Positions 2,804 through 17,313 of a DNA stretch of 62,962 bases are shown here, piece after piece. How positions within the stretch are numbered: position 1 is the first letter of the stretch; each line of letters opens with the position of its first letter. Both the position numbers and the translations under genes were made by a program. Source of the DNA: a virus. The stretch spans positions 1 to 62,962 of IMG/VR virus record IMGVR_UViG_3300031851_003821. One strand, 5' to 3'. The notes under the pieces were generated by a model. It ran no database searches. It was not told the origin of the DNA and saw nothing but the letters and a program-made list of their open reading frames with translations.

Positions 2804-4299
2804 ACTGTTACGCCGTATTCTTTTTCAAAGCGATTAGCATCAGACCTGTCATCAACCATTGGCTCGCCTCTTATGTTAAGGCTAGTATTTAACAACATGG
2901 GACAACCTGTCTTTCTATACCATGCACTCAATAACCGCCTTATGCCACTATCATTATCTGGAACTGTTTGTACTCTGCTTGTTCCATCCACATGTATAAT
3001 AGCCGGAAACTCTTCTGGCTTGGTGCAACGAGCAACCACCTGCATGTAACGACTTGTGGGTTGATAAAGAGGCATTGCAAAATAGTCATGTACATGCTCT
3101 TCAAGTATTACAGGAGCAAAAGGTCTAAACTTTTGTCTACGTTTAATTTCATTTACTCGATCTTTAATGTCTGCTCCGCGTGGATCAGCAAGTAAACTTC
3201 TATTGCCCAGTGCTCTTGGACCAAATTCTGCACGTCCATTTGCAACTCCAACAATTTGATTTGTTTCTAATTCTTTCAACAGTTCGTCTACTGGATATTC
3301 TCCTGAGATATTTGAGCCCAGATAAGGTGTTGTAAAGTTTATGTCTCTACCATATGCATAAGCGGCCGCACCTAAACTGCTTCCTGCATCGCCTGGGTTT
3401 GGCATTATCCATATTTTGTTAAACAGTTCTCCCAATCGTCGATTGATAACACAGTTAAGAGCAACACCGCCCATGTAAACTAGATTTTTACTAGTGCCAA
3501 GAGCCTTTGCTCTACGCATCACACCCATAACCATTTCTTCGCATAACCGTTGTCCTGCGGCGGCAATATCCTCTACTGTAACATCAGCTGCAAACTCAAC
3601 GTCATCAATGCCAAGGTGTAGATTATCTTTGAACAGTGGAATATCTGTAAATCGCACAGTTGCACGTTTTAATGTATTGTATGCCTTGTCAGCATCGCCG
3701 TAAGCAGCCATACCCATTGTGATGTATTCTTCATCCATTGGCTTTAATCCGCAACGTTTGGTTACTGCACTGTAGAACATACCAATACTGTGTGGATATG
3801 ATTGCTTGTATAACAGTTTGTAATTTGCTTTAGCGTGTTCGCCTGCTAGGCATGCACCGTTGTAGTATGCATGGTATATGCTGATTGTATCTGATTCACC
3901 AATAGCATCTATTACCACAACTGTTGCATCATCAAATGGTGATGTTTGAAAGCCTGCGGCCGCATGAGATAGATGATGTCCAACACTGCTGATTTCTGCA
4001 GATGTTTCATTCATTATATAAGGAATAGTACGTAGTAGTTCAGTTTGTGTACGCCAAGCACCGCCCCAACTTTCTCCGCTTTTGATTTTACGCAGTTGTC
4101 GTAGATGTGGCTTTTCATAGTATACTATCTTATCAAAAGGTCCGTATTCTTTTGCCTTCTGTTGTAGACTTACTGGAATAGTGCTATCGTTTTTGATCTT
4201 GCTGTAACGTTCTGCATGTCCTGCAAACAATACTCGGTGATTGTGCAGTACAGTTAAAGCCGCGTCGTGAAATCCTGCACTAACTCCTAGTATTCTCAT
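2794..4299 (-). CDS. Carbamoyltransferase, NodU/TobZ/CmcH family
   Basis: The 501-residue protein has both family domains. The N-terminal Kae1-like domain opens with MRILGVSAGFHDAALTVLHN and carries the metal-binding HHLSHAAAGF motif (about residue 107), then VVVIDAIGE. A YrdC-like C-terminal domain carries GRAEFGPRALGNRSLLADPR (about 355-375) and ends in the LNTSLNIRGEPMVDD segment. The family activates carbamoyl phosphate with ATP to carbamoyl-adenylate and carbamoylates hydroxyls of sugars, antibiotics or Nod factors. It is somewhat shorter than the usual members of about 550-600 residues, but both domain cores are present. It is coupled to the upstream gene through TAATG. Acceptor unknown: it could be a glycan made by the nearby glycosyltransferases, or a modified nucleobase. 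Confidence 0.92.
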   Translation of the reverse strand: MRILGVSAGFHDAALTVLHNHRVLFAGHAERYSKIKNDSTIPVSLQQKAKEYGPFDKIVYYEKPHLRQLRKIKSGESWGGAWRTQTELLRTIPYIMNETSAEISSVGHHLSHAAAGFQTSPFDDATVVVIDAIGESDTISIYHAYYNGACLAGEHAKANYKLLYKQSYPHSIGMFYSAVTKRCGLKPMDEEYITMGMAAYGDADKAYNTLKRATVRFTDIPLFKDNLHLGIDDVEFAADVTVEDIAAAGQRLCEEMVMGVMRRAKALGTSKNLVYMGGVALNCVINRRLGELFNKIWIMPNPGDAGSSLGAAAYAYGRDINFTTPYLGSNISGEYPVDELLKELETNQIVGVANGRAEFGPRALGNRSLLADPRGADIKDRVNEIKRRQKFRPFAPVILEEHVHDYFAMPLYQPTSRYMQVVARCTKPEEFPAIIHVDGTSRVQTVPDNDSGIRRLLSAWYRKTGCPMLLNTSLNIRGEPMVDDRSDANRFEKEYGVTVCS

Positions 4300-4829: not shown

Positions 4830-5933
4830 TTACCAACCTATCTTCTCCCAAGGAACATCTTTGTTGCCAAAGTGTCCGTATGTGCAATTTGCACTGTAGT
4901 TGTAAAAGTTGAAAAGATCAAATCTATCAATTATACCTTTAGGTGTGAGATCAATGTTTTCACGTATAAACTTTTGTATACTGCGATTGTGTCCATTTGA
5001 ATCTATGTAGACACTGGTAGGTTCTTTTACACCAATGGCATATGATATCTGTATTTGACACCAGTCTGCCATGTCGTCTGCTACAACGTTCTTTGCTAAC
5101 CAACGTGCCATATATGCTGCCGTTCTATCTACTTTTGTAGGATCTTTTCCTGAGAAAGCACCACCACCATGAGGAGCAAAGCCGCCATAGGTATCAACGA
5201 TAATTTTGCGTCCTGTAAGGCCAGTGTCACCATCAGGACCACCAATGACAAAATTGCCAGTTGGATTAAGATGGAATACAGTCTTGTCATCTATTAAATC
5301 TCCTAGTACTTCTTCGCATGCCGATCTTGTAGCCATACGTGCGGGTTCATAAAAGCTCTCATCTTTGTGTTGTTGACTTACCACAACTTGATCAATACGT
5401 TTTACCTTACCGCCGTCATACTCTACACTAACTTGACTCTTAGCATCAGGTCCAAGATATTTGTATCCATCTACACGTTTTTCTTTTATATTTTTTAATA
5501 TTTCATGAGAATAGTAAATTGGGGCGGGCAGATACGCATCATTCCCATTGCATGCGTAACCAAACATAATACCTTGATCACCTGCACCAAAATCGTCTGT
5601 GCCCAGTGCAATGTCGGCACTTTGTGAGTGCAATTGATTGTTGATTGTTTTATTATCAACTGTCAGTTTATCCCAATGAAATCCCGCTTGCTCGTAGCCA
5701 ATCTCTTTTACTTTGTCTCTTATAATTTGTTCAACTTGTTCATCAGAGATATTAAAGTTTTTAACTTCACCTGCTAGTACAACATAGTTTGTTGTGACCA
5801 TTGTTTCAACTGCTACTCTGGTTGTTTCATCACCGGCTTTGAGTCCAGCGTCAACCAATGCATCTGATATTTGGTCTGCTATTTTGTCAGGATGCCCTTC
5901 GCTCACTGACTCTGATGTAAAAATATAACTCAT
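4830..5933 (-). CDS. metK: S-adenosylmethionine synthetase
   Basis: The 367-residue protein is MetK, which makes SAM from methionine and ATP. All the signature stretches are present: FTSESVSEGHPDKIADQISD at the N-terminus with the ATP-binding GHPDK, GAGDQGIMFGYAC in the middle (family signature), and GGGAFSGKDPTKVDRTAAY towards the C-terminus (the P-loop-like signature). The length is close to the cellular enzyme of about 384 residues, and the active-site segments look intact. The ATG overlaps the stop of the 34-residue gene upstream (ATGA). A phage metK is unusual. Its location among five radical-SAM genes and an MTA/SAH nucleosidase gene suggests it supplies SAM to them, which is inference. 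Confidence 0.97.
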   Translation of the reverse strand: MSYIFTSESVSEGHPDKIADQISDALVDAGLKAGDETTRVAVETMVTTNYVVLAGEVKNFNISDEQVEQIIRDKVKEIGYEQAGFHWDKLTVDNKTINNQLHSQSADIALGTDDFGAGDQGIMFGYACNGNDAYLPAPIYYSHEILKNIKEKRVDGYKYLGPDAKSQVSVEYDGGKVKRIDQVVVSQQHKDESFYEPARMATRSACEEVLGDLIDDKTVFHLNPTGNFVIGGPDGDTGLTGRKIIVDTYGGFAPHGGGAFSGKDPTKVDRTAAYMARWLAKNVVADDMADWCQIQISYAIGVKEPTSVYIDSNGHNRSIQKFIRENIDLTPKGIIDRFDLFNFYNYSANCTYGHFGNKDVPWEKIGW

Positions 5934-6034
5934 TTGTATATAAAAGGATCCCTTTTCCGTAGTTCTTTAAGTTTCTTACGATATCGTATTTCTAGTTTTA
6001 TCTTATTAAAAAGATTCTTAATCCATGTTATCAT
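5930..6034 (-). CDS. Small basic protein, 34 residues
   Basis: A short gene fills the gap between metK and the next gene. It encodes 34 residues beginning MITWIKNLFNKIKLEIRYRK and ending LKELRKRDPFIYK. Three facts support it. There is a Shine-Dalgarno-like AAAGGTG six bases before the ATG. Its TGA overlaps the metK ATG in ATGA, the coupling used elsewhere in this block. The protein is a coherent amphipathic, Lys/Arg-rich helix ending in RDPFIYK. I recall similar short proteins with a C-terminal KRDPFIYK in other T4-like phages, but could not check this. It also overlaps the end of the upstream gene by 17 bases. Function unknown. Confidence 0.7.
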   Translation of the reverse strand: MITWIKNLFNKIKLEIRYRKKLKELRKRDPFIYK

Positions 6035-6704
6035 TATACACACCTTTTGTCTGTTTGTCAAGTAGTTCTGGATCAAATAATGGAACTGCACAAAAAGTTA
6101 AAGTACCTTTGTTTATCTTTGATACAGAACGCTTATAAGCAATTACAGTTTCTAAGTTATAGTAATTATACTCAGGATCAATAGGGGTTGTCCATTTTAA
6201 ACTGCTGCCAATTTGTGTTCCATGTTGAACATCATAGTTTGGTTCAACAGTACCTGCAAATTCATTGAAGTCAGTGTTCCAGTCTAGTAAGTATGGCAGT
6301 ATTAGCAGGCGCCATCCTTTTGACATTTTTGCACGCCAAGGATAGTTAAGAATTTTAAATCTATATTCATATAGACTGTAATCATCATCTGCCCAAGGTT
6401 TATCTCCTTTATTACCAAATATTGTGCCGTCAACCATTGGGGCTGATACTCTGCCCCTTGCAAAATATGTGTCGTATCCATCTAAGTCTTCTGGTAATGG
6501 AATAGTATAACCAATACTTGCAAGTCCTCTAAAACCTAAACAATTTCTTATTGTTTGTTGTTCAGCAAATGTAACTTCATCTCTTTTTCCTTTAAGTTTT
6601 TTAAACCATTCAGGCATGTGGTTACGCATAGGTGTAGGTGCTGGACATTTAAGGTACTGTATTTCTGGATCATCACAGTATTCCCACTCAAGAAAATTAT
6701 TCAT
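6018..6704 (-). CDS. Conserved phage-type hypothetical protein, 228 residues
   Basis: Not recognised with certainty. The protein is rich in Trp, Tyr and Pro. Near the N-terminus it has the segment KCPAPTPMRNHMPEWFKKLK, a kind of opening I associate with uncharacterised marine phage proteins. The middle has GWRLLILPYLLDWNTDFNEF and the C-terminal part has alternating strands. No signal peptide or membrane helix is seen. Its ATG overlaps the stop of the next upstream gene (ATGA), so it is translated from the same message as its neighbours. A role connected with the radical-SAM or glycan genes can only be guessed from position. Confidence 0.6.
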   Translation of the reverse strand: MNNFLEWEYCDDPEIQYLKCPAPTPMRNHMPEWFKKLKGKRDEVTFAEQQTIRNCLGFRGLASIGYTIPLPEDLDGYDTYFARGRVSAPMVDGTIFGNKGDKPWADDDYSLYEYRFKILNYPWRAKMSKGWRLLILPYLLDWNTDFNEFAGTVEPNYDVQHGTQIGSSLKWTTPIDPEYNYYNLETVIAYKRSVSKINKGTLTFCAVPLFDPELLDKQTKGVYNDNMD

Positions 6705-7753
6705 ATCAAAGGTACCTGCAGTTGTTTACTATCTGCCCAAGTGTAATCATATTCAGCATATGAATCACTGGTTTTAATACTATATACATCAAGATGATTA
6801 GTTAATATACTTAAAACTCCTTGAAAATCTTTACAAGCAAAACTTTTCTCCAGATCAACCTGTCCAATTTTTGGGTGTCCTATTGTTAAACTTGGATCGT
6901 CAGGATCAAAATTATTAGCAACTAGCCATTTCCTAAACTCGTTTAGTTTAGTTTGCATAAAAGGCCTATCACGGGTATCTTGTCCCCATTCTATGTCAAA
7001 GTCACCAGCAGCCTCTGTTTGTGGTTTTAATGTTGTAGTTGTTAATTCATCAATACGACTGTCTGCACCTTCATCCTGGAACACTTCATAATGGTGTTTA
7101 CCAACTGCTTTGTTAACTCCAACATACACACCGCCGTGGTCTCTTGCTATAGAATCAATTCCAAACAGGTTGTAGTCTTCGTCGTCTAGTATAAACCGCG
7201 GTGCATGTAACCAACACATTACGTTACTCGGACGTACCCATTCTGGAGCACTGGTTACTTTACCTAAGCTCATGATTAAACATTCTGCCTCGTGACATAG
7301 TAAGTTCAATTGTCTTATGTGCCATCGTGTTTCTGCATCTGCATTTGTGTAATGTTTGCTCATTGCACCACTTACTCCTTGTGTTTCTTCAAAGTATAAA
7401 TGCAACTGGTTAAGTTTGTCATGATTGAGGCCAATAATTTCGCAATTTCCTAATTTGCTCCAACGCTTAGTTGTCATGTTTGCAACTGTAAAATAGTCTT
7501 TTATTTCGTAGTCAATGCTACTACCGTTTATAGCCGCAATGGTTTGATTTATTTGCGTTACAATCACATCAAGATCACGTTCGCAATTTGGAAAGCCCAT
7601 AAAACAGTAATTCTTTTCGAGATGTAGTTTATTATCTAAAACATCATTGAATGCATTTAACCATTTTTTACTTAGACTGTTATCATAAACATCAAAGTAT
7701 ACGTGTAATAAACCATCTGCTCCACGCAGTTTCATTTCTATTCTATCCAGCAT
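6701..7753 (-). CDS. Hypothetical protein, 350 residues
   Basis: Not recognised. It is a cytosolic-looking mixed alpha/beta protein. The N-terminus (MKLRGADGLLHVYFDVYDNS) and a central region rich in His and Trp (ADAETRWHIRQLNLLCHEAE, VMCWLHAPRFILDDEDYNLF) are notable. The C-terminal part contains FRKWLVANNFDPDDPSLTIG. No motif gives an activity. It lies between a radical-SAM gene (start overlaps that gene's stop by 11 bases) and the 228-residue unknown (ATGA overlap), so it could be a substrate, a scaffold or a partner of the radical-SAM protein. The ATG at 7753 fits the overlap pattern; an internal Met at residue 7 is an alternative start. Confidence 0.6.
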   Translation of the reverse strand: MLDRIEMKLRGADGLLHVYFDVYDNSLSKKWLNAFNDVLDNKLHLEKNYCFMGFPNCERDLDVIVTQINQTIAAINGSSIDYEIKDYFTVANMTTKRWSKLGNCEIIGLNHDKLNQLHLYFEETQGVSGAMSKHYTNADAETRWHIRQLNLLCHEAECLIMSLGKVTSAPEWVRPSNVMCWLHAPRFILDDEDYNLFGIDSIARDHGGVYVGVNKAVGKHHYEVFQDEGADSRIDELTTTTLKPQTEAAGDFDIEWGQDTRDRPFMQTKLNEFRKWLVANNFDPDDPSLTIGHPKIGQVDLEKSFACKDFQGVLSILTNHLDVYSIKTSDSYAEYDYTWADSKQLQVPLI

Positions 7754-9071
7754 CGATTCTATCCCACCATTCTAATGTTTCTTCGCATCCTTGCGGGCCA
7801 GCAAATATATCTCTCATGCATAGTGCATTAGGACGTATATTTTCTAAAGTAAGTATTCTGCGTTTACCTTTACGCATACCTCTCCAGTATTCTTCTTCGC
7901 TATACTGCTCTTGAAGGGTAGGTCTATTTTTAAGTTGCAGTAGTACATCACGCAGTGCGTTTCCAAGTATAAATTTATTTACTATGCTATCAATCTTGCG
8001 GTCAAGTAAATCACGTGGCAGTGCAAGTGGCGACATTATAACATCAGGCGTAAAAGTGAATATTACTTTTGCTAATATATCCACATCCAAATCATCAGCC
8101 AGTGCCTGCATATTACTTACGTCCTGCATACCTGGCAGTGTAAGAGTGTAGTCTAAACGCATCATACGTCTATTATGAGCTAATGGTAAAAGCACTTTAA
8201 AATTATCAACAAATTCTTTATACTTCAATCCTGTACGTATGTATTCGCCGATTGCACCTGTACCATCTAAACTAGCACATATTTGCCAGTCACGTATATT
8301 TTTTAGTATATCATGGCCTAAGTGTATACCTTTGTATTTTATTCTACTCAAGTTTGTATTATACCTTGCATACAACTTTGGACCATCACCAAGTTCCACT
8401 ATACGTTTCATGTACCGCCAGTGCTGTTCGTACATCAGTGGTTCGCCACCTACCCAATATATCTCTTCGACCCTGTGTTCCTCAACTGCATCTGAAAACT
8501 CTTTTTCAATTTGTGTGTCTTGAAATTTGCTTATTTCTTTACGAACCTCTGGACGCATCCAGTTGTTTTTTGGGTTGTCTAAATTAACCATGTTGTGTTT
8601 TTTCTGTTCTGTTTCCCAACTTGAACTTAGCATATCACCGCAGGTACGACACTTAAAGTTACACAAGTTTGAAAATCTATAATCCCAACTGATTGGCTTC
8701 ATGCTGGTCCAACCTGTATCGTCTGTACTGGTCCACAGTTCATCATAACGGTGTTGAAACAAATGCCAAAAGTATGTTCTATATACATCAGTGTTTAACA
8801 GTTTGTCTGTACAGACTTCGCACTCGCTAAGTTTTTCGCCTGCCATCATTCTGCGTCTAACACTACGCATGTGTTCGCTATTCCAATGTTCTTCTAATGT
8901 ATTTGGGTTGTACTTTCCTGTGCCTGATGCAGTATCAATATACTGTTCAAAGCTCTGTGCTGGTTCACGTGATGCACAACACATTCTACGTTCAGTCTGG
9001 GGAGACAGATAGGTATGTGTCCAAGGAGCCATGCACAATGTTTCAGGCTTTTGTTCAGGCCTGTCTACCAT
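7743..9071 (-). CDS. Radical SAM protein with N-terminal twitch/SPASM-like Cys region (copy 1)
   Basis: The 442-residue protein has the radical-SAM cluster motif C137-x3-C141-x2-C144 in SNLCNFKCRTCGDMLSSSW. Next comes the SAM-binding GGEP-type motif in EEIYWVGGEPLMYEQHW. Upstream of the core is a second Cys-rich region: CMAPWTHTYLSP, a CC pair near residue 31, and CEVC near residue 84. This looks like the PW...C...C-x2-C layout of SPASM/twitch auxiliary-cluster domains, but placed N-terminally. Such enzymes reduce SAM to a 5'-deoxyadenosyl radical; the substrate is unknown. The ATG overlaps the stop of the MTA/SAH nucleosidase gene. One of six paralogues in the window, closest in layout to the genes at 9628, 10830 and 48959. 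Confidence 0.92.
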   Translation of the reverse strand: MVDRPEQKPETLCMAPWTHTYLSPQTERRMCCASREPAQSFEQYIDTASGTGKYNPNTLEEHWNSEHMRSVRRRMMAGEKLSECEVCTDKLLNTDVYRTYFWHLFQHRYDELWTSTDDTGWTSMKPISWDYRFSNLCNFKCRTCGDMLSSSWETEQKKHNMVNLDNPKNNWMRPEVRKEISKFQDTQIEKEFSDAVEEHRVEEIYWVGGEPLMYEQHWRYMKRIVELGDGPKLYARYNTNLSRIKYKGIHLGHDILKNIRDWQICASLDGTGAIGEYIRTGLKYKEFVDNFKVLLPLAHNRRMMRLDYTLTLPGMQDVSNMQALADDLDVDILAKVIFTFTPDVIMSPLALPRDLLDRKIDSIVNKFILGNALRDVLLQLKNRPTLQEQYSEEEYWRGMRKGKRRILTLENIRPNALCMRDIFAGPQGCEETLEWWDRIDAG

Positions 9072-9631
9072 ACAAATGCTATCTGTTCTTGTTCAGTGAG
9101 TATTGTTTTTTTAAACAGTTCTGCACCTTTGTGAACATTCTCACGCCATTCATTGCCCTGTGCATCGCCATCTGAATCACTATCTGAAATATACTTGTAA
9201 CAGTCAAACGGAATCATAAACTTTGTTGCAACCTTGGCAAGTGCATATGCTTCCATTTCGCATATCTGATAGTTAATATGTGGTACACTAAAACTATCAC
9301 CTGTGCCACAAACAAATAAACTGTCGTGCTTTGTTTGGCAAACGATCATCTGTTCTTCGTCTCCTGGGCTTACATACAGAGGCAGTCCCAATGGTGTGCA
9401 ATCCATGTCTCTTTCTATCACTGCACTTATACCTACTAGTTCGCCTTTAATTTCTTTACTACCGCCTGCTGAACCATAATTTATTATTTTGCTATATCTA
9501 TCATTATAACACAATTCTGCAGTAAGAGCAATACTAGCGTTTACTTTTCCTACACCTGTAACTAGCTTTTTATATCCACTTGGCAAAGTTCCCGGCAGTT
9601 CTTCTTCTAATGCGATAACAACTAGTATCAT
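9065..9631 (-). CDS. MTA/SAH nucleosidase (5'-methylthioadenosine/S-adenosylhomocysteine nucleosidase)
   Basis: The 188-residue protein belongs to the nucleoside phosphorylase/nucleosidase fold. Key residues can be matched to the family: the acidic run in VVIALEEEL (residues 9-11, like E12 of the E. coli enzyme), a glycine turn NYGSAGGSKE, E125/E127 in CEMEAYALAKVA (like E172/E174), and D150 in KYISDSDSDGDA (like D197). It is shorter than cellular forms of about 230 residues, mostly by shorter loops. The family cleaves MTA and SAH, and known members also cleave 5'-deoxyadenosine, the by-product of radical-SAM catalysis. It sits between two radical-SAM genes, overlapping both, and metK is in the same block. 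A role in clearing radical-SAM by-products is a strong contextual inference. Confidence 0.9.
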   Translation of the reverse strand: MILVVIALEEELPGTLPSGYKKLVTGVGKVNASIALTAELCYNDRYSKIINYGSAGGSKEIKGELVGISAVIERDMDCTPLGLPLYVSPGDEEQMIVCQTKHDSLFVCGTGDSFSVPHINYQICEMEAYALAKVATKFMIPFDCYKYISDSDSDGDAQGNEWRENVHKGAELFKKTILTEQEQIAFVW

Positions 9632-10833
9632 GTGTTTGGTCCTTTGTATTCTATAGCTTCTGCTAATTCAGCATGATGTGTACATAAATCTTGTTTCCTA
9701 CGCCAATCTACATCAGCAACTTTCATGCGTAAAATGTTTCCATCTAAACTTGCACCACCATTTATAAAGTCAATTATGTTGTTGAATTCTTTTCTGTGAT
9801 ATTCTGTTACTTTTGCGTTTTTTAATTTTCCTATTGCAACTTTTTTTGCACGGTCTGGTAATGTTCCAACACTATGATAATACGCTTCGTGCAACATGTT
9901 CCAATATACAAAGTCAAAATTGCGTTGATCAATCCAATTTGCAAGTCCTTCTAAATACATTACATTAAAAACGTTTACTGTGGAGCAAACCTGTAACTGT
10001 ATGTTTGTATTACGATCACGCATCGCCTCAAACCGATCCATGTTAGTGTTCACTTCTTCCCATATAGCATTAGCACGTTGATATTCAAAACGTTCACCAA
10101 CATCATCAATACTAAATGCTATCTCAATTAACTTAAAATGTTTCCATATCTCTTCTGCATGTTCTGGAAACTGTGTTCCATTAGTATTATAGTGTATTTC
10201 AACATTATGTGCAATACCTTTATCAACCATTCTTTGTAGTAAATCAAAATGTTCTTGTATCATGAAAGGTTCGCCACCGGTAAACTCTAAGTACCGGACT
10301 TGCTCCATTAGTTTGTCAATCTCTGTCCAAAACTTTTGATTGCGTCTTGGCCATGCTCCATCTTTAAGCATTTGGTAATGAAAGCTGTCTTTGCCCTCAA
10401 ACTTAACTTCTTCAGCCGCAAACGTACTTGAACTCCAACTACCGCATATACGGCATTTTAGGTTACAAATGTTGCCCAGTTTAAAATCTATAAACACCAG
10501 TGGCTTTGCATCAGCAGTCCATTCAGTATCGGTAACAATATGTTCTAATCTGTTAAGAGTGTGCATACGTTTTGATGTACGCCCTGAACGTTCTTCATTC
10601 CAGCACTTACGGCATGTTTGTGGCTTCTTGCCATCTAAAAATTCTTGACGTAGTTTTTGCATGTATTTGCTAGTATGAACTTCGTTAAGATCTGTTGTTA
10701 ATAGGCTATACTTGTTTCCATCTGTATCTGTAATCTCATCCTCTGCTAAACAACAAGGCCTGGTAGTGCCAATAGGTGACGTTTCTAAACTTACCCAAGG
10801 CAAGACACAAAATGTTTCATGTGGTAATTTCAC
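9628..10833 (-). CDS. Radical SAM protein with N-terminal twitch/SPASM-like Cys region (copy 2)
   Basis: The 401-residue protein carries C123-x3-C127-x2-C130 in LGNICNLKCRICGSWSSS and the SAM-binding segment YLEFTGGEPFMIQEHF. N-terminal to this is the auxiliary-type region: FCVLPWVSLETSPIGTTRPC, a CC pair at 27-28, then CRKC near residue 74. It shares SS after the third core Cys with the other copies. The start is GTG, overlapping the stop of the upstream radical-SAM gene in GTGA. Its own stop overlaps the ATG of the MTA/SAH nucleosidase. The substrate is unknown. Among the copies it is most like those at 7743, 10830 and 48959. Confidence 0.92.
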   Translation of the reverse strand: MKLPHETFCVLPWVSLETSPIGTTRPCCLAEDEITDTDGNKYSLLTTDLNEVHTSKYMQKLRQEFLDGKKPQTCRKCWNEERSGRTSKRMHTLNRLEHIVTDTEWTADAKPLVFIDFKLGNICNLKCRICGSWSSSTFAAEEVKFEGKDSFHYQMLKDGAWPRRNQKFWTEIDKLMEQVRYLEFTGGEPFMIQEHFDLLQRMVDKGIAHNVEIHYNTNGTQFPEHAEEIWKHFKLIEIAFSIDDVGERFEYQRANAIWEEVNTNMDRFEAMRDRNTNIQLQVCSTVNVFNVMYLEGLANWIDQRNFDFVYWNMLHEAYYHSVGTLPDRAKKVAIGKLKNAKVTEYHRKEFNNIIDFINGGASLDGNILRMKVADVDWRRKQDLCTHHAELAEAIEYKGPNT

Positions 10834-12113
10834 TTTAATGCTCCAAGTTCTGGTATTACATCTAGTATATTCTCATTTCGTATACCATCAAGTTGATTGG
10901 TCTTTTGCCAAAACTTTTCTAGTAAATGTGTATTGTCTGTTTTGAGATATTGTATTGCACTTTCAAACCCTACAGTTGCTCTGTTTAATTGGTCAAGTGG
11001 TCGTAACCATTCAAGATGTTTTTCATACTTTGAGATAATCTGATCTTTATACTCTTGTGGTGCAATATCTATTCTGTAATAATCTGGATCTTGAAGTATG
11101 TTTATATTAAGATCTTGTGCTCTTATCAAACCTTTACCAGCCCATTCTCTATGAAAGTGAGGAATGTGCAGTGCATTCATTATGCTTAACGTCGGGCTGA
11201 TATAAAAGTCAACCTGTGGACATATCTCCATCATCTGTCGTCTGTTCTCTTCAACAACACTCCATTTGGTACCTTTGCGTATGTATTCAGCACGTGTACC
11301 CATTGCATCTAAACTTGCACCAACTGCAACACTGTCAAACTTTTTCCAGTAGTCAAATACGAGTCTATCTTTTAATTGTACATGTGTAAAATTTGTATTG
11401 TAAATCAGTCTGACATCAAATCTGCCTCTGCGTTCCAGTTCTTCTAAGATAACATAGTGTTCATCCATCATGCAAGGTTCGCCGCCAGCAAAGTATATCT
11501 GCTCAACATGATCTAAATGTTCCATTAGTTGGTCCATCATGTCAGTTTTGAAACGTCCAGCATAGTTTAACACATTGTTGTTCTTTGCCCATTCAGGACC
11601 TGCTAGTGCAGTTTGGTCTTTATACCAACTGCTGGAAAATATATGTCCACAACTTCTGCAACTTAGGTTACAAAGATTTGAAAAACGTATGTCCCAATAG
11701 GTCATTTCAAAATCTTTGTATTCACCGTCTGGTGTTGTGTCTTTTGTTCTGTGTATGTGATGTCCGTGATGCTTGTTAGCACTTTGTCTACCTGAGAAGA
11801 AGCCTGACTTCTCCTGTTCGTAACAACGTCCGCATGCACTGTTCTCTGTTTCTGTTAGCATGTCTTTACGTAGTTGCTTTTGTTCTGCACTATTCCATAT
11901 TTCAGTCATGGTGTTTGTTTTACAGTTGCCTACCTGTCCTACGCCCATTTCAGCATGACAACAAGGATATGCTTCGCCTGTTGGATATGCGTGTAGATGT
12001 ATCCAAGGATACATACAAAATGTTTTGCTTTCACTAAGCAAAAACTGTTCGCGTTGCTCTAGGTCGCTTAACTTTATCTTAATAGGATCACTGCTATTAT
12101 AATTATAACTCAC
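10830..12113 (-). CDS. Radical SAM protein with N-terminal twitch/SPASM-like Cys region (copy 3)
   Basis: The 427-residue protein has C148-x3-C152-x2-C155 in FSNLCNLSCRSCGHIFSSSW and the SAM-binding IYFAGGEPCMMDEHY. The N-terminal auxiliary-type region reads FCMYPWIHLHAYPTGEAYPC, then a CC pair at 51-52, then VGNCKTNTMTEIWNSAEQKQ and CGRC near residue 94. This is the clearest match in the window to the SPASM/twitch wording (pG..ypC...GN...eiWns...C..C). The start is GTG at 12113 because no ATG lies near the overlap with the upstream gene (11 bases). Substrate unknown. Confidence 0.92.
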   Translation of the reverse strand: MSYNYNSSDPIKIKLSDLEQREQFLLSESKTFCMYPWIHLHAYPTGEAYPCCHAEMGVGQVGNCKTNTMTEIWNSAEQKQLRKDMLTETENSACGRCYEQEKSGFFSGRQSANKHHGHHIHRTKDTTPDGEYKDFEMTYWDIRFSNLCNLSCRSCGHIFSSSWYKDQTALAGPEWAKNNNVLNYAGRFKTDMMDQLMEHLDHVEQIYFAGGEPCMMDEHYVILEELERRGRFDVRLIYNTNFTHVQLKDRLVFDYWKKFDSVAVGASLDAMGTRAEYIRKGTKWSVVEENRRQMMEICPQVDFYISPTLSIMNALHIPHFHREWAGKGLIRAQDLNINILQDPDYYRIDIAPQEYKDQIISKYEKHLEWLRPLDQLNRATVGFESAIQYLKTDNTHLLEKFWQKTNQLDGIRNENILDVIPELGALK

Positions 12114-13455
12114 TGAACCACTCTTTCATGCTTGGAAATGCTTTGTTAAAATTTTTGTTGCGACGTATATCATATTGATTATAAAACTGTTTAAAATCAT
12201 TGTGCAACTTTGGAGTTTCAAATGCTTCACTGTGAGGTGTTTTTACAACATCTAAATAGTCGAGCAATCTCTGTGTTTGATTTAATTCGTGTTCATGAAG
12301 AAATTTATTATCTGCATTTTCATCATACCATTCTTGTAATCTATTCTTATGCAATGTGCGTAAATGATCAGGTAAAGCAAGTGCAGATTGAAAACTAGGA
12401 AAACGTAATATATTCAATGTAAAACTTGGATAGTCTCTACCGTACATTTCTTTAAACTTTAATAGGTAACCTAAAAATTCTGGTAATGTTTCTAAGCACA
12501 GTGCATTCACTGTACACATATTATGTAAACCACGTAACTTGCCACTGCCTGCTAACAAATGCATGTTTCTTGCCCATGTACTCCATTCTAAGCCATCACG
12601 TATATACTCAGCTTGATGTACTAAACTTTCGTTTGATGTATAGATATCAAGTGGAGCACTATCAGCTCTATCAAGTAATTTATAAATTTGCGAATCGTCG
12701 CATTGTAAGTTACTATTAATTGCGATGCGAGTCTTGCTTGCACCTTTGTTCTCTTTAAACCAGTCTAACAGTTTCCACAAGTGTCCACTCATCATCGGTT
12801 CGCCACCAGTAATACGTAGCTCGTCTAGGGTATAGTGCAAATCACTTTCCCACCATTTGAAGAATGCTTCAATGTAGGGGTTAGTTTCATTAAACTTATA
12901 CAATTGACTACTATCATGTGGATGTGTAAAATGATTACGCCCATCGCTGATTAAATTTTCATATGAACCATTCTTCTTAATGTCTTTTACCCATGTGGTT
13001 GAGAAAGCAGGATTGCAATAGCTACACGCAAGTTGACAAGTTCTATCAAATGCAATTTCTAGTGTCTTAAGATTAACGTCAATTTGATGATCACGTTCAT
13101 ATGCGGCCTGCAGTGCATTATCCTCATAGATTACACTTTTATAGACTCTATCACTGATATTATCTCTGCCTATGTCTTCTACTTTCCAACAGTATTCGCA
13201 ACCCTTAGGACGCTCACCACACTGCATTTGTCTACGTTCTTCTTTTTTCTCAGGTGTGTTGTGTAGTGCCTTTGGATTAGCAATCACATCTTCCACACTT
13301 ACTTTATGTGGCAGTGGATGATGGCAACTTGTAGTCATACCAGACCCTAGCCAGATGGTTGCATTGTACCATTTGGCGCCACACATACTTGAACTTAGTG
13401 GATCAAGCACTCGTTGTTTATAATTTAGGTCAGTTTCATTTGCTTGTTTGGGCAT
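12103..13455 (-). CDS. Radical SAM protein, second subgroup (copy 4)
   Basis: The 450-residue protein has C140-x3-C144-x2-C147 in FDRTCQLACSYCNPAFST and the SAM-binding LRITGGEPMMSGHLWKLLDW. The N-terminal Cys region differs from copies 1-3: MCGAKWYNATIWLGSGMTTS, a CHHP segment, ALHNT, then CEYCWKVED. This is shared with the neighbouring copy 5 (CLAKW, CYHPP, ALHNT, CSYCWAMED). The two form a tandem-duplicated subgroup, also sharing a C-terminal NKNF/NTNF...FP.M..W ending. Seventeen bases separate it from copy 5, with a TATAATTATA palindrome just upstream of the ATG and no clear ribosome binding site. Substrate unknown. Confidence 0.9.
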   Translation of the reverse strand: MPKQANETDLNYKQRVLDPLSSSMCGAKWYNATIWLGSGMTTSCHHPLPHKVSVEDVIANPKALHNTPEKKEERRQMQCGERPKGCEYCWKVEDIGRDNISDRVYKSVIYEDNALQAAYERDHQIDVNLKTLEIAFDRTCQLACSYCNPAFSTTWVKDIKKNGSYENLISDGRNHFTHPHDSSQLYKFNETNPYIEAFFKWWESDLHYTLDELRITGGEPMMSGHLWKLLDWFKENKGASKTRIAINSNLQCDDSQIYKLLDRADSAPLDIYTSNESLVHQAEYIRDGLEWSTWARNMHLLAGSGKLRGLHNMCTVNALCLETLPEFLGYLLKFKEMYGRDYPSFTLNILRFPSFQSALALPDHLRTLHKNRLQEWYDENADNKFLHEHELNQTQRLLDYLDVVKTPHSEAFETPKLHNDFKQFYNQYDIRRNKNFNKAFPSMKEWFSEL

Positions 13456-13473
13456 ATGTATAATTATACAGAT

Positions 13474-14904
13474 TTAGATGTTAGCAAGATATTTGCACTC
13501 TTCCCACCATGTAGACATTTCAGGAAAAGTTTTTAAAAAATTTGTATTACGGCGTCTATCATGTTCGTTAAAGAATCTGTAGAAGTCTGCTTTGTTCTGT
13601 TTTATATATTCTGGATCTAGATTTTGTCCGCTACGCATCCATGCAATGTCTCTATCAAGTCTAGCAACTTCGTAATCTTTGAATCCTTTAAAACGGTTCT
13701 CTTCTGTTTCTAAATTATCTTGCATCCATTTTTTACTTATTTCAAGTTCGTGGACATAGCTTTCAGGAAGTATCTGTAAACTTTGCCATGTGGGTGTACG
13801 GAGCACAGGCGTATCAAACCATATACGTTGGTAAGTGTTACTGTATATTTGACGCAACCCCAGTATTGAAGTAAAAAGTTTTTGTAAACTTGTGATGCTT
13901 AAATTATTCATTGTAATAATAAACGTTAAACTGCTACGTTCTGGTACATCTATTAGAAACTGATTTACTCTGTCCCAAAGCAAGTTAAAGTCCAATCCAT
14001 GACGCATGTATTCTGCTGGTTCAAACATGCCATCGAGGCTTACATACTGCATAAAGTGTTCAACTGTTCCTTGCTTTTCACAAAGCATTGTTACATAAGC
14101 CTTGTACTTTTGCCAAAGTTTCTCTTCAACACTGAAGTTGGATGTAGTACTAAGATGTAACTTTGGTGATGGGTTCATTAGAACATGATCGAATACTCTG
14201 TATGTGTTTTTATCCATCATTGGTTCACCACCAGTCATTCTAAAATGTTCAAGCTCAGGATATAATGTTGGCCACCATTTCCAAAATGCTTCAACATAAG
14301 GATTGTGTTCTCTTGCGGGTATGGGCCTGCGTTCTCCTACAAAGTGACTAGGATCATTGTGTGGTGTTGAAGTTGGCCATGCACCTTCACGTTGTGTTTC
14401 TTTCATCCAACTACTACTATACTGAGGTGAACAATAACTACAACTTAGATTACAAGCACTGTTAAAGTCAACCTCAACATAACTAGGAACTATATCCTGA
14501 TCCCACGGTGCATTCTTAATAGTTTCAAAGTCTTTCATTGCCCACGGCTCGCCTGAACGATAGTGTCTATCACTGAGTTTGTTGTTGTCTTCCATAGCCC
14601 AACAATAACTACACTCTGGCGGTCTAGTGCCTTCAAGCATAAGTTTACGTTGTTGCTTCTTGTGTTCTGTGTTGTGCAATGCACTTGGATTAGTTTTTAT
14701 TGCTTCAGCATCTGCTCTGTGCAGTGGAGGATGATAACAACTGTTGTTCATACCAGTTGTTAAATGCAAACTCAGTTGTTTCCATTTTGCCAAACAGAAA
14801 CTAGGCGACACAGTATCTAGTTTCTGTTGTGCCCGTTCAGCATCACTTAGAAACTTACTTTTAAAGTCTTTGCTAACTTCATCACCTTTATTTTGAGTTA
14901 CCAA
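13474..14904 (-). CDS. Radical SAM protein, second subgroup (copy 5)
   Basis: The protein has the motif C-x3-C-x2-C in FNSACNLSCSYCSPQYSSSW and the SAM-binding FRMTGGEPMMDKNTYRVFDH. Its N-terminal Cys region (CLAKW, CYHPP, ALHNT, CSYCWAMED) matches copy 4. No ATG precedes these motifs. I choose the TTG at 14904, which overlaps the stop of the upstream gene in TTGGTAA and has GGAG nine bases before it. A TTG at 14961 would add 19 residues inside the upstream gene. From 14904 the product has 476 residues and the core Cys are 151, 155 and 158. Substrate unknown; tandem duplicate of copy 4. Confidence 0.88.
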   Translation of the reverse strand: MVTQNKGDEVSKDFKSKFLSDAERAQQKLDTVSPSFCLAKWKQLSLHLTTGMNNSCYHPPLHRADAEAIKTNPSALHNTEHKKQQRKLMLEGTRPPECSYCWAMEDNNKLSDRHYRSGEPWAMKDFETIKNAPWDQDIVPSYVEVDFNSACNLSCSYCSPQYSSSWMKETQREGAWPTSTPHNDPSHFVGERRPIPAREHNPYVEAFWKWWPTLYPELEHFRMTGGEPMMDKNTYRVFDHVLMNPSPKLHLSTTSNFSVEEKLWQKYKAYVTMLCEKQGTVEHFMQYVSLDGMFEPAEYMRHGLDFNLLWDRVNQFLIDVPERSSLTFIITMNNLSITSLQKLFTSILGLRQIYSNTYQRIWFDTPVLRTPTWQSLQILPESYVHELEISKKWMQDNLETEENRFKGFKDYEVARLDRDIAWMRSGQNLDPEYIKQNKADFYRFFNEHDRRRNTNFLKTFPEMSTWWEECKYLANI

Positions 14905-15818
14905 CCTTCTTGACTCCGGATCACATCTATTTCTCTTGTCATAATTGATTGATTGTGCCAATTACTACGATAGTGATGTTTGAAAAATTTGCTTTGCTCA
15001 GGATTGTAGGTATTCATTGGTAGACCTAGTTGACGTTCTAAGTCTTGTTCTTTATCAGTGACTAATTCATTGGATGAACGGTCTTTGACTTCGTTCCATA
15101 TGTCTTCTAATAGATTAAAATCTTGAACTTTTTTGTAGTCCCAATCGCTTAACATTGTTTTCCAAGTTCCTAGTCTTGCGCCTGCAATTGCCCATAGTCC
15201 ATGTTCTGTGTCTGCACCAATGTTGTGCCATATGGTTAGATGGTCTAGGTTTCTATTGTGTACACTTTCTCTAAATTCACTTACACTTGGTTTTGAACCT
15301 CTGTCAAGACACATTTTTACGCCTTCTCTAAAGCCTGCACGGAACGCATGTTTTGCACTTTCTCCAGGATAGGTAGTTGAATAACAGTTGTACATTGGCC
15401 AATATAGATCATCAAAGCAAAACTCTACGTCAGTGTCATCTGCGCCTTCAGAGGCTTCGTGTGTACGCATGTTTTGTACAAATGTTTTTGTCCATGAGCT
15501 TATTCCGCCGTTGCCGTACATTAGTCCATTTATATCGTTCCTTGCACGCCATCTGTAAACTGCTTGTTCATACTGTTCTGTTTTATATTCTATAGTTTCG
15601 TTAAAAAAACTTTCTTGCGGCAAGTTATCACCGTCAATCAAGATAAAACGTTCAGTATCGCTGGCATCAGCAGCCGCTTTGTGTGCAGCATCAGAACCTT
15701 TGACTCCGTCTACACGTTTTGCCCACGGAACCATATTGCGTATCTTTATCCAAAACTCTTCTTTTTTAGGTTCATCATAGCTCAGGTATATGCAATCTAA
15801 ATCAGCAACATCAATCAT
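14898..15818 (-). CDS. Glycosyltransferase-like protein (GT-A type, DGD motif)
   Basis: The ATG at 15818 overlaps the stop of the upstream gene (ATGATTGA) and has AGGAG eleven bases before it, so I prefer it to an upstream TTG at 15866. The product has 306 residues. The N-terminus MIDVADLDCIYLSYDEPKKE leads to DTERFILIDGDNLPQESFF. That D-G-D-N segment after a hydrophobic strand has the form of the metal-binding DxD motif of GT-A glycosyltransferases. A hypervariable, aromatic-rich C-terminal half follows. No signal peptide. It lies between radical-SAM copy 5 and an exported protein gene, near two more DxD-type proteins. Sugar donor and acceptor unknown; a nucleotidyltransferase-like role is possible. 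Confidence 0.65.
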   Translation of the reverse strand: MIDVADLDCIYLSYDEPKKEEFWIKIRNMVPWAKRVDGVKGSDAAHKAAADASDTERFILIDGDNLPQESFFNETIEYKTEQYEQAVYRWRARNDINGLMYGNGGISSWTKTFVQNMRTHEASEGADDTDVEFCFDDLYWPMYNCYSTTYPGESAKHAFRAGFREGVKMCLDRGSKPSVSEFRESVHNRNLDHLTIWHNIGADTEHGLWAIAGARLGTWKTMLSDWDYKKVQDFNLLEDIWNEVKDRSSNELVTDKEQDLERQLGLPMNTYNPEQSKFFKHHYRSNWHNQSIMTREIDVIRSQEGW

Positions 15819-16191
15819 TCTTTCTATACTCTCCTGAGAATGGTGTAAAATCAGTACCGCCAGCAATTACGCAGGCAACGTTAAAGCCATTAACTTTTTG
15901 ATAACTGAAAATGGTAAATGTCCTTGTTTTTGGATTCACATACATAAGCAAATCAACAGTGACCATATCAGGTTTCATAAGTGGTTTAATTGCAAATACT
16001 CCACTTGCAAACTCTTGTTCGCCATGCTTGTTTACTATATCTGAAAGATAGTCAATGCCTTGCTCACTGCATGGTACCTGCATGTTTAACAATAGCTGTG
16101 TTCTGTCTGGCTTTGGCTTTGGTTTTGGTATTTCTTGAGCGTTGGTGTTAAATGCGGTAAGCAGTAACACCAGTATAATTAGGTGTTTCAT
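15811..16191 (-). CDS. Exported hypothetical protein with signal peptide, 126 residues
   Basis: The N-terminus MKHLIILVLLLTAFNTNAQE is a classical Sec signal peptide: Lys-His, a run of about ten hydrophobic residues, then NTNA before the mature chain. The mature protein starts with a Pro/Lys stretch (EIPKPKPKPDRTQ) and contains two Cys (VPCSEQ and NVACVIAGG) that could form a disulfide in the periplasm. It resembles small host-like exported proteins of marine bacteria and cyanophages, but I do not recognise a family. It is the only clearly exported product in the metabolic block. Its stop overlaps the start of a glycosyltransferase-like gene. Confidence 0.7.
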   Translation of the reverse strand: MKHLIILVLLLTAFNTNAQEIPKPKPKPDRTQLLLNMQVPCSEQGIDYLSDIVNKHGEQEFASGVFAIKPLMKPDMVTVDLLMYVNPKTRTFTIFSYQKVNGFNVACVIAGGTDFTPFSGEYRKND

Positions 16192-16208: not shown

Positions 16209-16556
16209 TTAATCAGCATAATAGGTTTTGACTTTCCATTTTACTGAACTATTAGTATCAACAATCATTACATTGTCAACTGCACAAGCAACTCCTTCAT
16301 TTCCAGGTACTAACTTTCGCCACCGAACTGCATCTATAATGCTTGTCAACTTACCATTTAGTACAATGCTATCGTAACGACTTTCAGCATACTGTTGTTT
16401 GGTAATCTCAATATAATCACCGTCTAGATCCTCAGTTGAATACTGTAAGGCCTTACCTGTTTGTTTATTATAGTATAATTTATATTTTTTGTCAACCTGT
16501 TTTACTGGTTTTCCATGTTCTTCAAATATTTTGAAGAAGTCTACTGACTCAGTCAT
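16209..16556 (-). CDS. Hypothetical protein, 115 residues
   Basis: Not recognised. It is a small soluble protein with alternating strands and turns (KYKLYYNKQTGKALQYSTED, GDYIEITKQQYAE, NVMIVDTNSSVKWKVKTYYA). This pattern resembles small virion or assembly-associated phage proteins in which an N-terminal helical segment is followed by strands. The ATG overlaps the end of the upstream glycosyltransferase-like gene by 8 bases, so it is co-translated. Seventeen bases separate it from the exported protein gene. No activity can be assigned. Confidence 0.6.
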   Translation of the reverse strand: MTESVDFFKIFEEHGKPVKQVDKKYKLYYNKQTGKALQYSTEDLDGDYIEITKQQYAESRYDSIVLNGKLTSIIDAVRWRKLVPGNEGVACAVDNVMIVDTNSSVKWKVKTYYAD

Positions 16557-17313
16557 AACAATTCCCTAGTTCTGTTGCAAGATATTTTTGATGATAATGT
16601 ACAAACCCATATTGATTATGCCCATTTATACGCATTACACCATTGGCGATTTCCCAGATCAGTTCCTTGTTCCAATCTTCTGCAGTAGTTCCAAGTATTG
16701 CTGGTTTCATATGAACAATCTGTGGGCCATAACCAGGTGTACAATAATTATCTTCGCATAAAGCATAAATTAAATCAGTGTTAGCTACTTCATCGTGTCC
16801 ACCTTGTATTATATCTTTTGCACTATCCCAGTTTTCAAACGTTTTTTGTACTTCTGTAAAAAATTGTTTTGCTTCAACACTCATACGCCAATACGTAATA
16901 GCATTATAAACATCTGTCAATTTATTTTTATCAAATATTTTTCTATACTTTCTTACTTTACTTGGAATATTATGAAAGTTTCTACAACCAGTTGATATCC
17001 AAACTGGCTTTGTTCTATACAAGTTCCACCAATGATCCACCGGACCGCTTACAATCATATCTGCTTCTAACTTTACAGTTTCGTGAAAAGGACTAGCGTG
17101 AAAAACTTGCCAATCAGTTGTCCATCCACCTGTATTACCATAAGGAAACTGTTTAACATAATCAAATAATGCATTAGTGTATTCAACATCAGTGAGTAAA
17201 CATATTTTTACATCTGGGTGCCAATAACGCAGACTTTTTGCTAGTGTTTCAGCACATACAATATAATCTTTACTACCAACTATTAAGTACCCTCTATCTG
17301 CTTCATACGGCAT
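16549..17313 (-). CDS. Glycosyltransferase-like protein, GT-A type
   Basis: The start at 17313 (MPYEADRGYLIVGSKDYIVC) has GGAG seven bases upstream and overlaps the previous stop by 11 bases; a longer start inside the previous gene is less likely. The 254-residue product has a first Rossmann-like strand (GYLIVGSKDYIVCAETLAKS), a second (DVKICLLTD) and FHETVKLEADMIVSGPVDHW. The last has the position of the DxD-type metal site of GT8-like and related glycosyltransferases. The next gene upstream has the same layout with DTDY. The C-terminal GFVHYHQKYLATEL is typical of proteins that close the donor site with a His. Substrates unknown. Confidence 0.65.
   Translation of the reverse strand: MPYEADRGYLIVGSKDYIVCAETLAKSLRYWHPDVKICLLTDVEYTNALFDYVKQFPYGNTGGWTTDWQVFHASPFHETVKLEADMIVSGPVDHWWNLYRTKPVWISTGCRNFHNIPSKVRKYRKIFDKNKLTDVYNAITYWRMSVEAKQFFTEVQKTFENWDSAKDIIQGGHDEVANTDLIYALCEDNYCTPGYGPQIVHMKPAILGTTAEDWNKELIWEIANGVMRINGHNQYGFVHYHQKYLATELGNCYD

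What the first reader, a model, noticed from the sequence alone, without database searches (positions are those of the whole stretch)
4830..14904. A phage-encoded SAM cycle: metK, MTA/SAH nucleosidase and five radical-SAM genes in one transcription unit
metK (4830), a nucleosidase gene (9065) and five radical-SAM genes are co-directional and overlap or nearly touch. Known members of the nucleosidase family cleave 5'-deoxyadenosine, the inhibitory by-product of radical-SAM enzymes, as well as MTA and SAH. The set therefore has a source of SAM, consumers, and clearance of the waste product. The DUF59 Fe-S protein downstream could supply clusters. Such a self-contained SAM economy in a virus would be remarkable. 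The gene identities are seen in sequence; the cooperation is inference.
Basis: partly seen in the sequence, partly recalled or inferred. Interest (0 to 1): 0.88.

Follow-up and report, generated by a model that had tools for sequence, protein, structure and literature searches.

The report
Virus operon feeding radical-SAM enzymes
A large virus of bacteria carries a row of five radical enzymes together with genes that would make their fuel and remove their inhibitory waste, a pairing that seems to have arisen at least twice in viruses and is partly described already.

Summary
On the minus strand of a T4-like jumbo-phage fragment lie metK (4830-5933), a short nucleosidase (9065-9631), five twitch-domain radical-SAM genes (7743-14904), a carbamoyltransferase and a DUF59 gene; 8 of 11 junctions overlap by 1-11 bp. 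The radical-SAM row is the old part. The helpers mark one subclade: nucleosidase 15/15 subclade loci against 0/43 outside, metK 7/8 against 0/26, DUF59 4/4 against 0/17. A second phage lineage also has the nucleosidase between twitch radical-SAM genes (12 of 31 loci, some near-copies), and at least 5 of those 12 contigs carry metK. This supports 'SAM in, 5'-deoxyadenosine out' as help for radical-SAM enzymes; nothing was assayed. It is no cycle: no LuxS or SAH hydrolase was found. Elsewhere the nucleosidase often lies near adenine phosphoribosyltransferase (30/62 viral, 33/80 bacterial loci), so adenine salvage is a live rival. A Baikal T4-like virus with radical-SAM, metK and nucleosidase genes is in print (PMC7678222), as are five-gene radical-SAM plus amidinotransferase modules in T4-like phages (PMC2853527). 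Verdict: real, new variant of a known kind, moderately interesting.

The parts
13474..14904 (-). rSAM_A, twitch-domain radical SAM protein (open frame from 14961; TTG at 14904)
   Evidence: NF033640 299 bits, cut-off 170; CxxxCxxC; start codon
12103..13455 (-). rSAM_B, twitch-domain radical SAM protein
   Evidence: NF033640 279 bits
10830..12113 (-). rSAM_C, twitch-domain radical SAM protein; CxxxCxxC and five N-terminal cysteines invariant in 12 aligned sequences
   Evidence: NF033640 404 bits; alignment A7; N-terminal region weakly like BtrN, E 0.007
9628..10833 (-). rSAM_D, twitch-domain radical SAM protein
   Evidence: NF033640 338 bits
9065..9631 (-). short nucleosidase (PNP_UDP_1 superfamily, MTA/SAH-nucleosidase-like), overlaps rSAM_D by 4 bp and rSAM_E by 7 bp
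   Evidence: PF01048 over cut-off; E11, E127, D150 invariant in 5 sequences of three divergent groups; PDB hits MTA/SAH nucleosidases, best E 6e-12; dN/dS 0.035-0.097 in the 5 of 6 pairs with a defined dS
7743..9071 (-). rSAM_E, twitch-domain radical SAM protein
   Evidence: NF033640 279 bits
6701..7753 (-). conserved protein of unknown function in the core cassette
   Evidence: seen in 52 of 74 rSAM_C loci; AF2 model pLDDT 88.8; no PDB match at E <= 0.001; 10 uncharacterised phage matches
6018..6704 (-). uncharacterised protein, present in few relatives
   Evidence: phrog_7084 E 3e-10; 12 ORF hits over L001-L098
5930..6034 (-). 34-codon ORF whose stop overlaps the metK start
6033..6061 (-). 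sigma70-consensus promoter-like site (12 of 12) upstream of metK
   Evidence: same place in L003, L005, L008, not in L004, L011, L013, L015, L016
4830..5933 (-). metK, methionine adenosyltransferase
   Evidence: TIGR01034 over cut-off; invariant HPDK, FGAGDQG, GGPDGD.G.TGRK and GAFSGKDPTKVDR motifs in 6 phage copies
4299..4829 (-). uncharacterised protein between metK and the carbamoyltransferase
   Evidence: ORF, no Pfam match
2794..4299 (-). NodU-type carbamoyltransferase
   Evidence: PF02543 and PF16861 over cut-off; phrog_1601
2486..2803 (-). DUF59/MIP18 (SufT/PaaD-like) Fe-S protein
   Evidence: PF01883 over cut-off
1464..2489 (+). amidinotransferase, convergent with the operon, neighbour in many relatives
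   Evidence: profile matches L-arginine:glycine amidinotransferase E 1e-25, SxtG and inosamine-phosphate amidinotransferase
301..1476 (+). protein of a repeated phage family (tglu301), function unknown
14898..15866 (-). glycosyltransferase-like protein with an invariant DGD motif
   Evidence: alignment A2; 2 of 15 members weakly match GT family 2; no PDB family
16549..17364 (-). glycogenin/GT8-like protein
   Evidence: profile A3 matches glycogenin, best E 3e-5; no clear Pfam match
48959..50509 (+). sixth twitch-domain radical SAM gene, between SbcD- and SbcC-like genes

Best explanation
The core is an old phage cassette of five twitch-domain radical-SAM enzymes set among glycosyltransferase-like, carbamoyltransferase and amidinotransferase genes; most likely it builds or decorates a sugar or glycoconjugate (target unknown). 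In one subclade three support genes were added: MetK makes SAM from methionine and ATP; the nucleosidase, overlapping two radical-SAM genes, splits the 5'-deoxyadenosine they release (and any MTA or SAH) into adenine and a 5-deoxypentose, lifting product inhibition; DUF59 helps Fe-S loading. Shown: gene identities, order, conserved active-site residues, purifying selection, recurrence in a second lineage. Inferred: enzyme activities, 5'-deoxyadenosine as the main substrate, gain rather than loss, the cooperation, and the sugar target.
For: Identities over curated cut-offs. nuc overlaps rSAM_D by 4 bp in 18/18 loci, near-copies included. nuc 15/15 inside the subclade against 0/43 outside, metK 7/8 against 0/26, DUF59 4/4 against 0/17. 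Second lineage: nuc flanked on both sides by twitch rSAM genes in 12 of 31 loci, in 8 of the 12 within 50 bp on each side, 11 of 12 with amidinotransferases (L326 is L139 itself, and L327/L328, L336/L337, L339/L347 look like near-copies); 5 of the 12 contigs have metK; the two nuc groups are apart in the tree. L183 has metK, CarbT, a NifU-domain gene and several rSAM genes together. E. coli Pfs cleaves MTA, SAH and 5'-deoxyadenosine and prevents inhibition (PMC10986504); 5'-deoxyadenosine inhibits radical-SAM enzymes (PMC8102628). No DNA methylase of three Pfam families over its cut-off in 8 window-clade records.
Against: No biochemistry. The rSAM row does without metK and nuc at this place in the relatives outside the subclade. 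Viral metK and nuc are mostly not next to rSAM genes in the loci examined: N_Twi within the locus in 21 of the best 80 metK loci, 3 of them window clade; rSAM within 3 kb in 1 of 62 further nuc loci by a crude finder; 0 of 10 records with metK and N_Twi have nuc. L017's 316-kb record has nuc but no metK. In L004 a methyltransferase-domain gene lies between gene 6018 and metK. nuc fails all listed NCBIfam cut-offs; its AF2 model failed (pLDDT 38.6). metK may be transcribed separately. Generic methyltransferase domains occur in 5 of 9 records.
Confidence: 0.53

Rival explanations
1. Adenine salvage: the nucleosidase frees adenine from MTA, SAH or other 5'-modified nucleosides so that a phosphoribosyltransferase can feed phage nucleotide pools; its place in the rSAM row is secondary.
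For: apt-like gene within 3 kb in 30/62 other viral and 33/80 bacterial nuc loci; phosphoribosyltransferase-domain genes in 4 of 9 phage records.
Against: In the 8 window-clade records every such gene found lies more than 40 kb from nuc, and the window has none (records are fragments). Tight overlap with rSAM genes in two lineages. The two readings are compatible.
Confidence: 0.2
2. Methylation support: MetK and nuc serve phage methyltransferases (SAM supply, SAH removal), as the Baikal VP_139 authors proposed for their virus.
For: Generic methyltransferase domain in 5 of 9 records, in L004 directly before metK; published interpretation for VP_139 (PMC7678222 section 9).
Against: No LuxS or SAH hydrolase; no D12 or C5 methylase in 9 records, N4/N6 over cut-off only in G009; nuc sits among rSAM genes.
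Confidence: 0.14
3. Independent auxiliary genes: metK and nuc are common virus genes that merely landed in the cassette.
For: At least 513 metK and 365 nuc relatives in viral contigs; of those examined most lack rSAM neighbours.
Against: Fixed position and overlaps over the subclade, purifying selection, and the second nuc/rSAM arrangement.
Confidence: 0.13

Closest known systems
Lake Baikal T4-like virus VP_139 (Coutinho 2020, PMC7678222; section 9 read)
   Same: A virus affiliated to T4-like phages with radical-SAM proteins, methionine adenosyltransferase and MTA/SAH nucleosidase, called SAM-cycle genes
   Different: Interpreted as PQQ and methylation support; the section's text does not describe one overlapping operon or clearance of 5'-deoxyadenosine (its genome map was not seen)
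Campylobacter phages CP220/CPt10 radical-SAM module (Timms 2010, PMC2853527; passages read)
   Same: Clusters with five radical-SAM genes plus a putative glycine amidinotransferase, proposed as an interchangeable module
   Different: No metK or nucleosidase mentioned in the passages read; no Campylobacter phage among the rSAM_C hits
Marine T4-like EVG TARA_ERS488813_N000010 (Nishimura 2017, PMC5332604; section 14 read)
   Same: 12 radical-SAM genes with paaD (a DUF59-type gene by recall) and an A-type Fe-S carrier; idea of viral Fe-S supply
   Different: No metK or nucleosidase mentioned in that section
E. coli Pfs/MtnN as helper of radical-SAM enzymes (PMC10986504 and PMC8102628, passages read)
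   Same: Nucleosidase clearing 5'-deoxyadenosine, MTA and SAH
   Different: Cellular housekeeping enzyme (solved E. coli chains of 234-242 aa among the hits, E. coli origin recalled); the phage one has 188 aa and a PRK05634-like sequence

Membership tests
Methionine adenosyltransferase (MetK) | Equivalog model over cut-off and conserved active-site motifs | tested here: met
   431 against 309 bits; motifs invariant in 6 phage copies; which residues are catalytic is recalled
Methionine adenosyltransferase (MetK) | Enzyme activity | not testable with these tools
   no assay
MTA/SAH/5'-deoxyadenosine nucleosidase (MTAN) | PNP_UDP_1 superfamily | tested here: met
   PF01048 43.9 against 25.1 bits; PDB MTANs E 6e-12
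MTA/SAH/5'-deoxyadenosine nucleosidase (MTAN) | NCBIfam MTAN equivalog cut-off | tested here: not met
   PRK05634 80 of 129, PRK05584 48 of 169, TIGR01704 31 of 74 bits
MTA/SAH/5'-deoxyadenosine nucleosidase (MTAN) | Catalytic Glu, Glu, Asp (equivalents of E. coli E12, E174, D197; numbering recalled) | tested here: met
   E11, E127, D150 invariant in A8
MTA/SAH/5'-deoxyadenosine nucleosidase (MTAN) | Cleavage of 5'-deoxyadenosine | not testable with these tools
   AF2 model unusable
Twitch-domain radical SAM (NF033640) | Subfamily cut-off and CxxxCxxC | tested here: met
   5 of 5 in the operon and a sixth; motif read
SAM/methyl cycle | Regeneration of methionine from SAH (LuxS or SAH hydrolase) | tested here: not met
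   0 of 9 records for either family, two window-clade records over 300 kb; records may be fragments
DUF59/MIP18 Fe-S assembly | PF01883; SUF_assoc equivalog | tested here: inconclusive
   PF01883 met; TIGR02945 95 of 143 bits, not met
Single transcription unit | One promoter, no internal start | tested here: inconclusive
   overlapping genes but a promoter-like site before metK, kept in 3 of 8 relatives; no transcript data

The most novel reading that the evidence does not exclude
Some large phages run a radical-SAM workshop with its own logistics: dedicated SAM synthesis, 5'-deoxyadenosine disposal and Fe-S loading, assembled independently at least twice around multi-enzyme radical-SAM sugar-tailoring cassettes, making product inhibition by 5'-deoxyadenosine a selective force on viral genome layout.
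Probability: 0.35. Interest if true: 0.75.

Novelty: new variant of a known kind. Interest (0 to 1): 0.52.

Why it matters
If right, it shows viruses investing in removal of an enzyme by-product, and gives a natural test of how strongly 5'-deoxyadenosine limits radical-SAM pathways in vivo: matched phages with and without the nucleosidase, metK and DUF59 around the same five radical-SAM enzymes. It also points to a phage radical-SAM/carbamoyl/amidino cassette, seen in dozens of viral contigs, whose product is unknown.

Tried and rejected
AF2 of the nucleosidase on 10 similar sequences (78-93% identical to the first) failed (pLDDT 38.6), so the pocket was not analysed. The model of gene 6701 was good (88.8) but has no PDB match at E <= 0.001; the VIA-align rows are mostly cyclophilins at Z 7-8 (top row a mitoribosomal protein, 8.2), the range the tool calls common for models without a clear match, so no function is claimed. 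Profile searches for genes 14898 and tglu301 gave nothing solid. L154's nuc/radical-SAM adjacency was dropped as support: near relatives L131, L134, L145 lack it. L183's metK/CarbT/rSAM cluster was found only there and in L358, with the same hits and scores, among 62 CarbT loci. Closed SAM cycle: rejected for lack of LuxS and SAH hydrolase. Promoter and terminator scans: totals equal to shuffles; only the site before metK is kept, and the perfect sites at 16495 and 32812 are not interpreted. PHROGs gave metK a family without a function and nuc none. A Pfam scan of the L004 gene before metK failed on a wrong frame and was not repeated; its domain rests.

Limits: searches return only the best 80 of 365, of at least 513, and of 389. 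The subclade is defined by an rSAM_C score of at least 840 from a model trained on it: 20 of 74 loci; the 54 others include truncated subclade fragments. Loci are partly near-copies. Of 74 loci, 58 show both rSAM_D and rSAM_E, and 34 show both 6701 and CarbT; the DUF59 count uses the 21 loci with at least 2.5 kb beyond a full CarbT. In the tree, 7 window-clade loci (near-copies, and the truncated L018) were left out beforehand, and the program warns of long branches. The rSAM finder is a crude motif plus profile; it missed L154. The apt profile there was built from three ORFs that I recognised by eye. The QueE- and FolE-like genes in L101 are recognised by eye only.
Full report
What was checked. 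metK is over the NCBIfam equivalog cut-off, the nucleosidase is over the Pfam PF01048 cut-off (not over any of the 8 NCBIfam nucleosidase models listed), all five radical-SAM genes are over the NF033640 twitch radical-SAM cut-off, and DUF59 and a NodU-type carbamoyltransferase are over their Pfam cut-offs. A sixth twitch radical-SAM gene lies at 48959-50509. The record is a 62,962-base viral contig with portal, baseplate, late-sigma and SbcCD-like genes of T4 type; its portal is nearest, at 49-50% identity, to jumbo phages Phosso, PA5oct-like and Atu_ph07.

Operon anatomy. From rSAM_A to DUF59, 8 of 11 junctions overlap by 1-11 bp; the others are 0 bp (metK/4299), 18 bp (rSAM_A/rSAM_B) and 84 bp before metK, where a 34-codon ORF ends on the metK start. 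A 12-of-12 sigma70-like site lies 128 bp before metK; it is at the same distance in L003, L005 and L008 and not found in L004, L011, L013, L015 and L016. So the metK-carbamoyltransferase-DUF59 part may also be transcribed by itself.

History. Searching IMG/VR with the nucleosidase gave 18 loci, all in the same cassette. Searching with rSAM_C gave 74 loci down to 35% identity. In many of these, glycosyltransferase-like genes, rSAM A-E, gene 6701 and the carbamoyltransferase keep their order, with the amidinotransferase on the other strand. Where both rSAM_D and rSAM_E are seen (58 of 74 loci), the nucleosidase is present in 15 of 15 loci of the close subclade and 0 of 43 others; where gene 6701 and the carbamoyltransferase are both seen (34 of 74), metK is present in 7 of 8 against 0 of 26; where at least 2.5 kb beyond a full carbamoyltransferase is held (21 of 74), DUF59 is present in 4 of 4 against 0 of 17. 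In 20 records of 89-344 kb, metK occurs in 8, the nucleosidase in 9, twitch radical-SAM genes in 20. Outside the subclade, G009 has both genes elsewhere, metK two kilobases from a carbamoyltransferase and the nucleosidase near an amidinotransferase; G010 has metK only; G016 has the nucleosidase only. The radical-SAM row is thus the older part and exists without these helpers in other phages.

Second lineage. L139, found with a wider profile, has the nucleosidase between twitch radical-SAM genes. Of 31 loci new in the search with its nucleosidase, 12 have it flanked on both sides by twitch radical-SAM genes (8 of the 12 within 50 bp on each side, the others with a gap of up to 2.4 kb on one side), 11 of the 12 with amidinotransferases; 19 do not. 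One of the 12 is L139 itself and three pairs look like near-copies. Five of the 12 contigs also appear among the metK loci (L327/L184, L328/L182, L331/L181, L339/L204, L347/L203); the other seven were not searched whole for metK. In a 144-row tree the window-clade nucleosidases form one group (support 100/96) next to gammaproteobacterial MAG sequences and L104, while L139 lies in another well-supported group (100/99), with warnings about long branches. The arrangement therefore most simply arose twice.

Counter-evidence. In 62 other viral loci an apt-like gene lies within 3 kb of the nucleosidase in 30, a radical-SAM gene in 1, metK in 2; in 80 bacterial loci apt in 33 and neither of the others. 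Among 80 viral metK loci a twitch radical-SAM hit lies within the locus (up to 10 kb each side) in 21, three of them the window clade. Ten records with metK and a twitch radical-SAM hit had no nucleosidase. In L004, a member of the window clade, a methyltransferase-domain gene lies between gene 6018 and metK. Both helpers are thus common viral genes that may have other uses. In the phage-record collection, metK relatives were found in 135, nucleosidase relatives in 7 and rSAM_C relatives in 2 of 50,697 records.

Are the enzymes likely active? metK keeps its signature motifs in six phage copies. The nucleosidase keeps E11, E127 and D150 across three divergent groups, which I equate with the catalytic residues of MTA/SAH nucleosidases (numbering recalled; the regions align with solved ones). 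dN/dS is 0.035-0.097 for the nucleosidase (5 of 6 pairs; the sixth saturated) and 0.079-0.120 for metK (5 pairs). E. coli Pfs acts on MTA, SAH and 5'-deoxyadenosine and prevents their inhibitory build-up (PMC10986504, passages), and 5'-deoxyadenosine inhibits radical-SAM enzymes (PMC8102628, passages). Substrate preference of the phage enzyme is inference.

What the cassette does. Gene 16549 resembles glycogenin (E 3e-5); gene 14898 has an invariant DGD motif and weak GT2 matches in 2 of 15 aligned sequences; the amidinotransferase profile matches AGAT, SxtG and inosamine-phosphate amidinotransferase; the rSAM_C N-terminal region weakly matches BtrN (E 0.007); Vibrio phage K566 interleaves twitch radical-SAM genes with GT8 genes. 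I infer a sugar or glycoconjugate tailoring pathway; the target is unknown.

Not a cycle. LuxS and SAH hydrolase are absent from 9 records, two of the window clade over 300 kb, though records may be incomplete. D12 and C5 DNA methylases are absent from the same 9 records and N4/N6 methylases are over cut-off only in G009; generic methyltransferase domains occur in 5 of 9, so some SAM may go to methylation.

Prior art. Coutinho 2020 (PMC7678222, section 9 read) reports a T4-like Baikal virus with radical-SAM, metK, nucleosidase and methyltransferase genes. Timms 2010 (PMC2853527, passages) reports five-gene radical-SAM plus amidinotransferase modules in Campylobacter phages. Nishimura 2017 (PMC5332604, section 14) reports a T4-like genome with 12 radical-SAM genes and paaD. 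metK as a viral gene is mentioned in PMC6359870 (passage); PMC13037316 (passages) discusses jumbo-phage dcm with metK and mtnN in the host. Nine accepted paper searches listed no paper whose title, abstract start or passages read propose 5'-deoxyadenosine clearance by a phage; only open-licence PMC papers were searched.

Verdict. Real and recurrent; cooperation plausible (0.53) but untested; new variant of a known kind.

Noticed in passing
window 5930-6034 (-): A 34-aa ORF rich in Lys and Arg ends on the metK start codon; its C-terminal half is kept in the window clade. A pattern search before 80 viral metK genes gave 4 hits: 3 are window clade, the fourth (L177) a different sequence.
   Followed up: partly
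window 48959-50509 (+): A sixth twitch radical-SAM gene sits between SbcD-like and SbcC-like genes.
   Followed up: partly
window 21582-35150 (-): A 4522-codon open frame upstream of the cassette, next to a baseplate wedge gene (35152-38559).
   Followed up: no
window 6701-7753 (-): Core cassette protein with a confident model but no PDB match at E <= 0.001; its 10 good structural matches are uncharacterised proteins of uncultured phages and of Agrobacterium phage Atu_ph07.
   Followed up: partly
L101 8824-9921 (record G010): metK begins about 240 bp after a gene that looks by eye like queE, in a stretch that starts with a folE-like gene.
   Followed up: no
L107, L108, L260 and other nuc loci: An apt-like gene lies near the short nucleosidase in many viral and bacterial loci (30/62 and 33/80), suggesting an adenine-salvage pair; L108 has apt, metK and nuc close together.
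   Followed up: partly
L004 14895-16079 (+): A 394-aa methyltransferase-domain protein is encoded between gene 6018 and metK in this member of the window clade.
   Followed up: partly
window 301-1476 and 11-307 (+); relatives L029, L049, L069: Members of a repeated protein family (tglu301/98aa) are scattered between the radical-SAM genes in many relatives.
   Followed up: no
L103 (Vibrio phage K566) 11980-19719: In a named Vibrio phage, four twitch radical-SAM genes are interleaved with two GT8 genes annotated as hypothetical proteins.
   Followed up: partly
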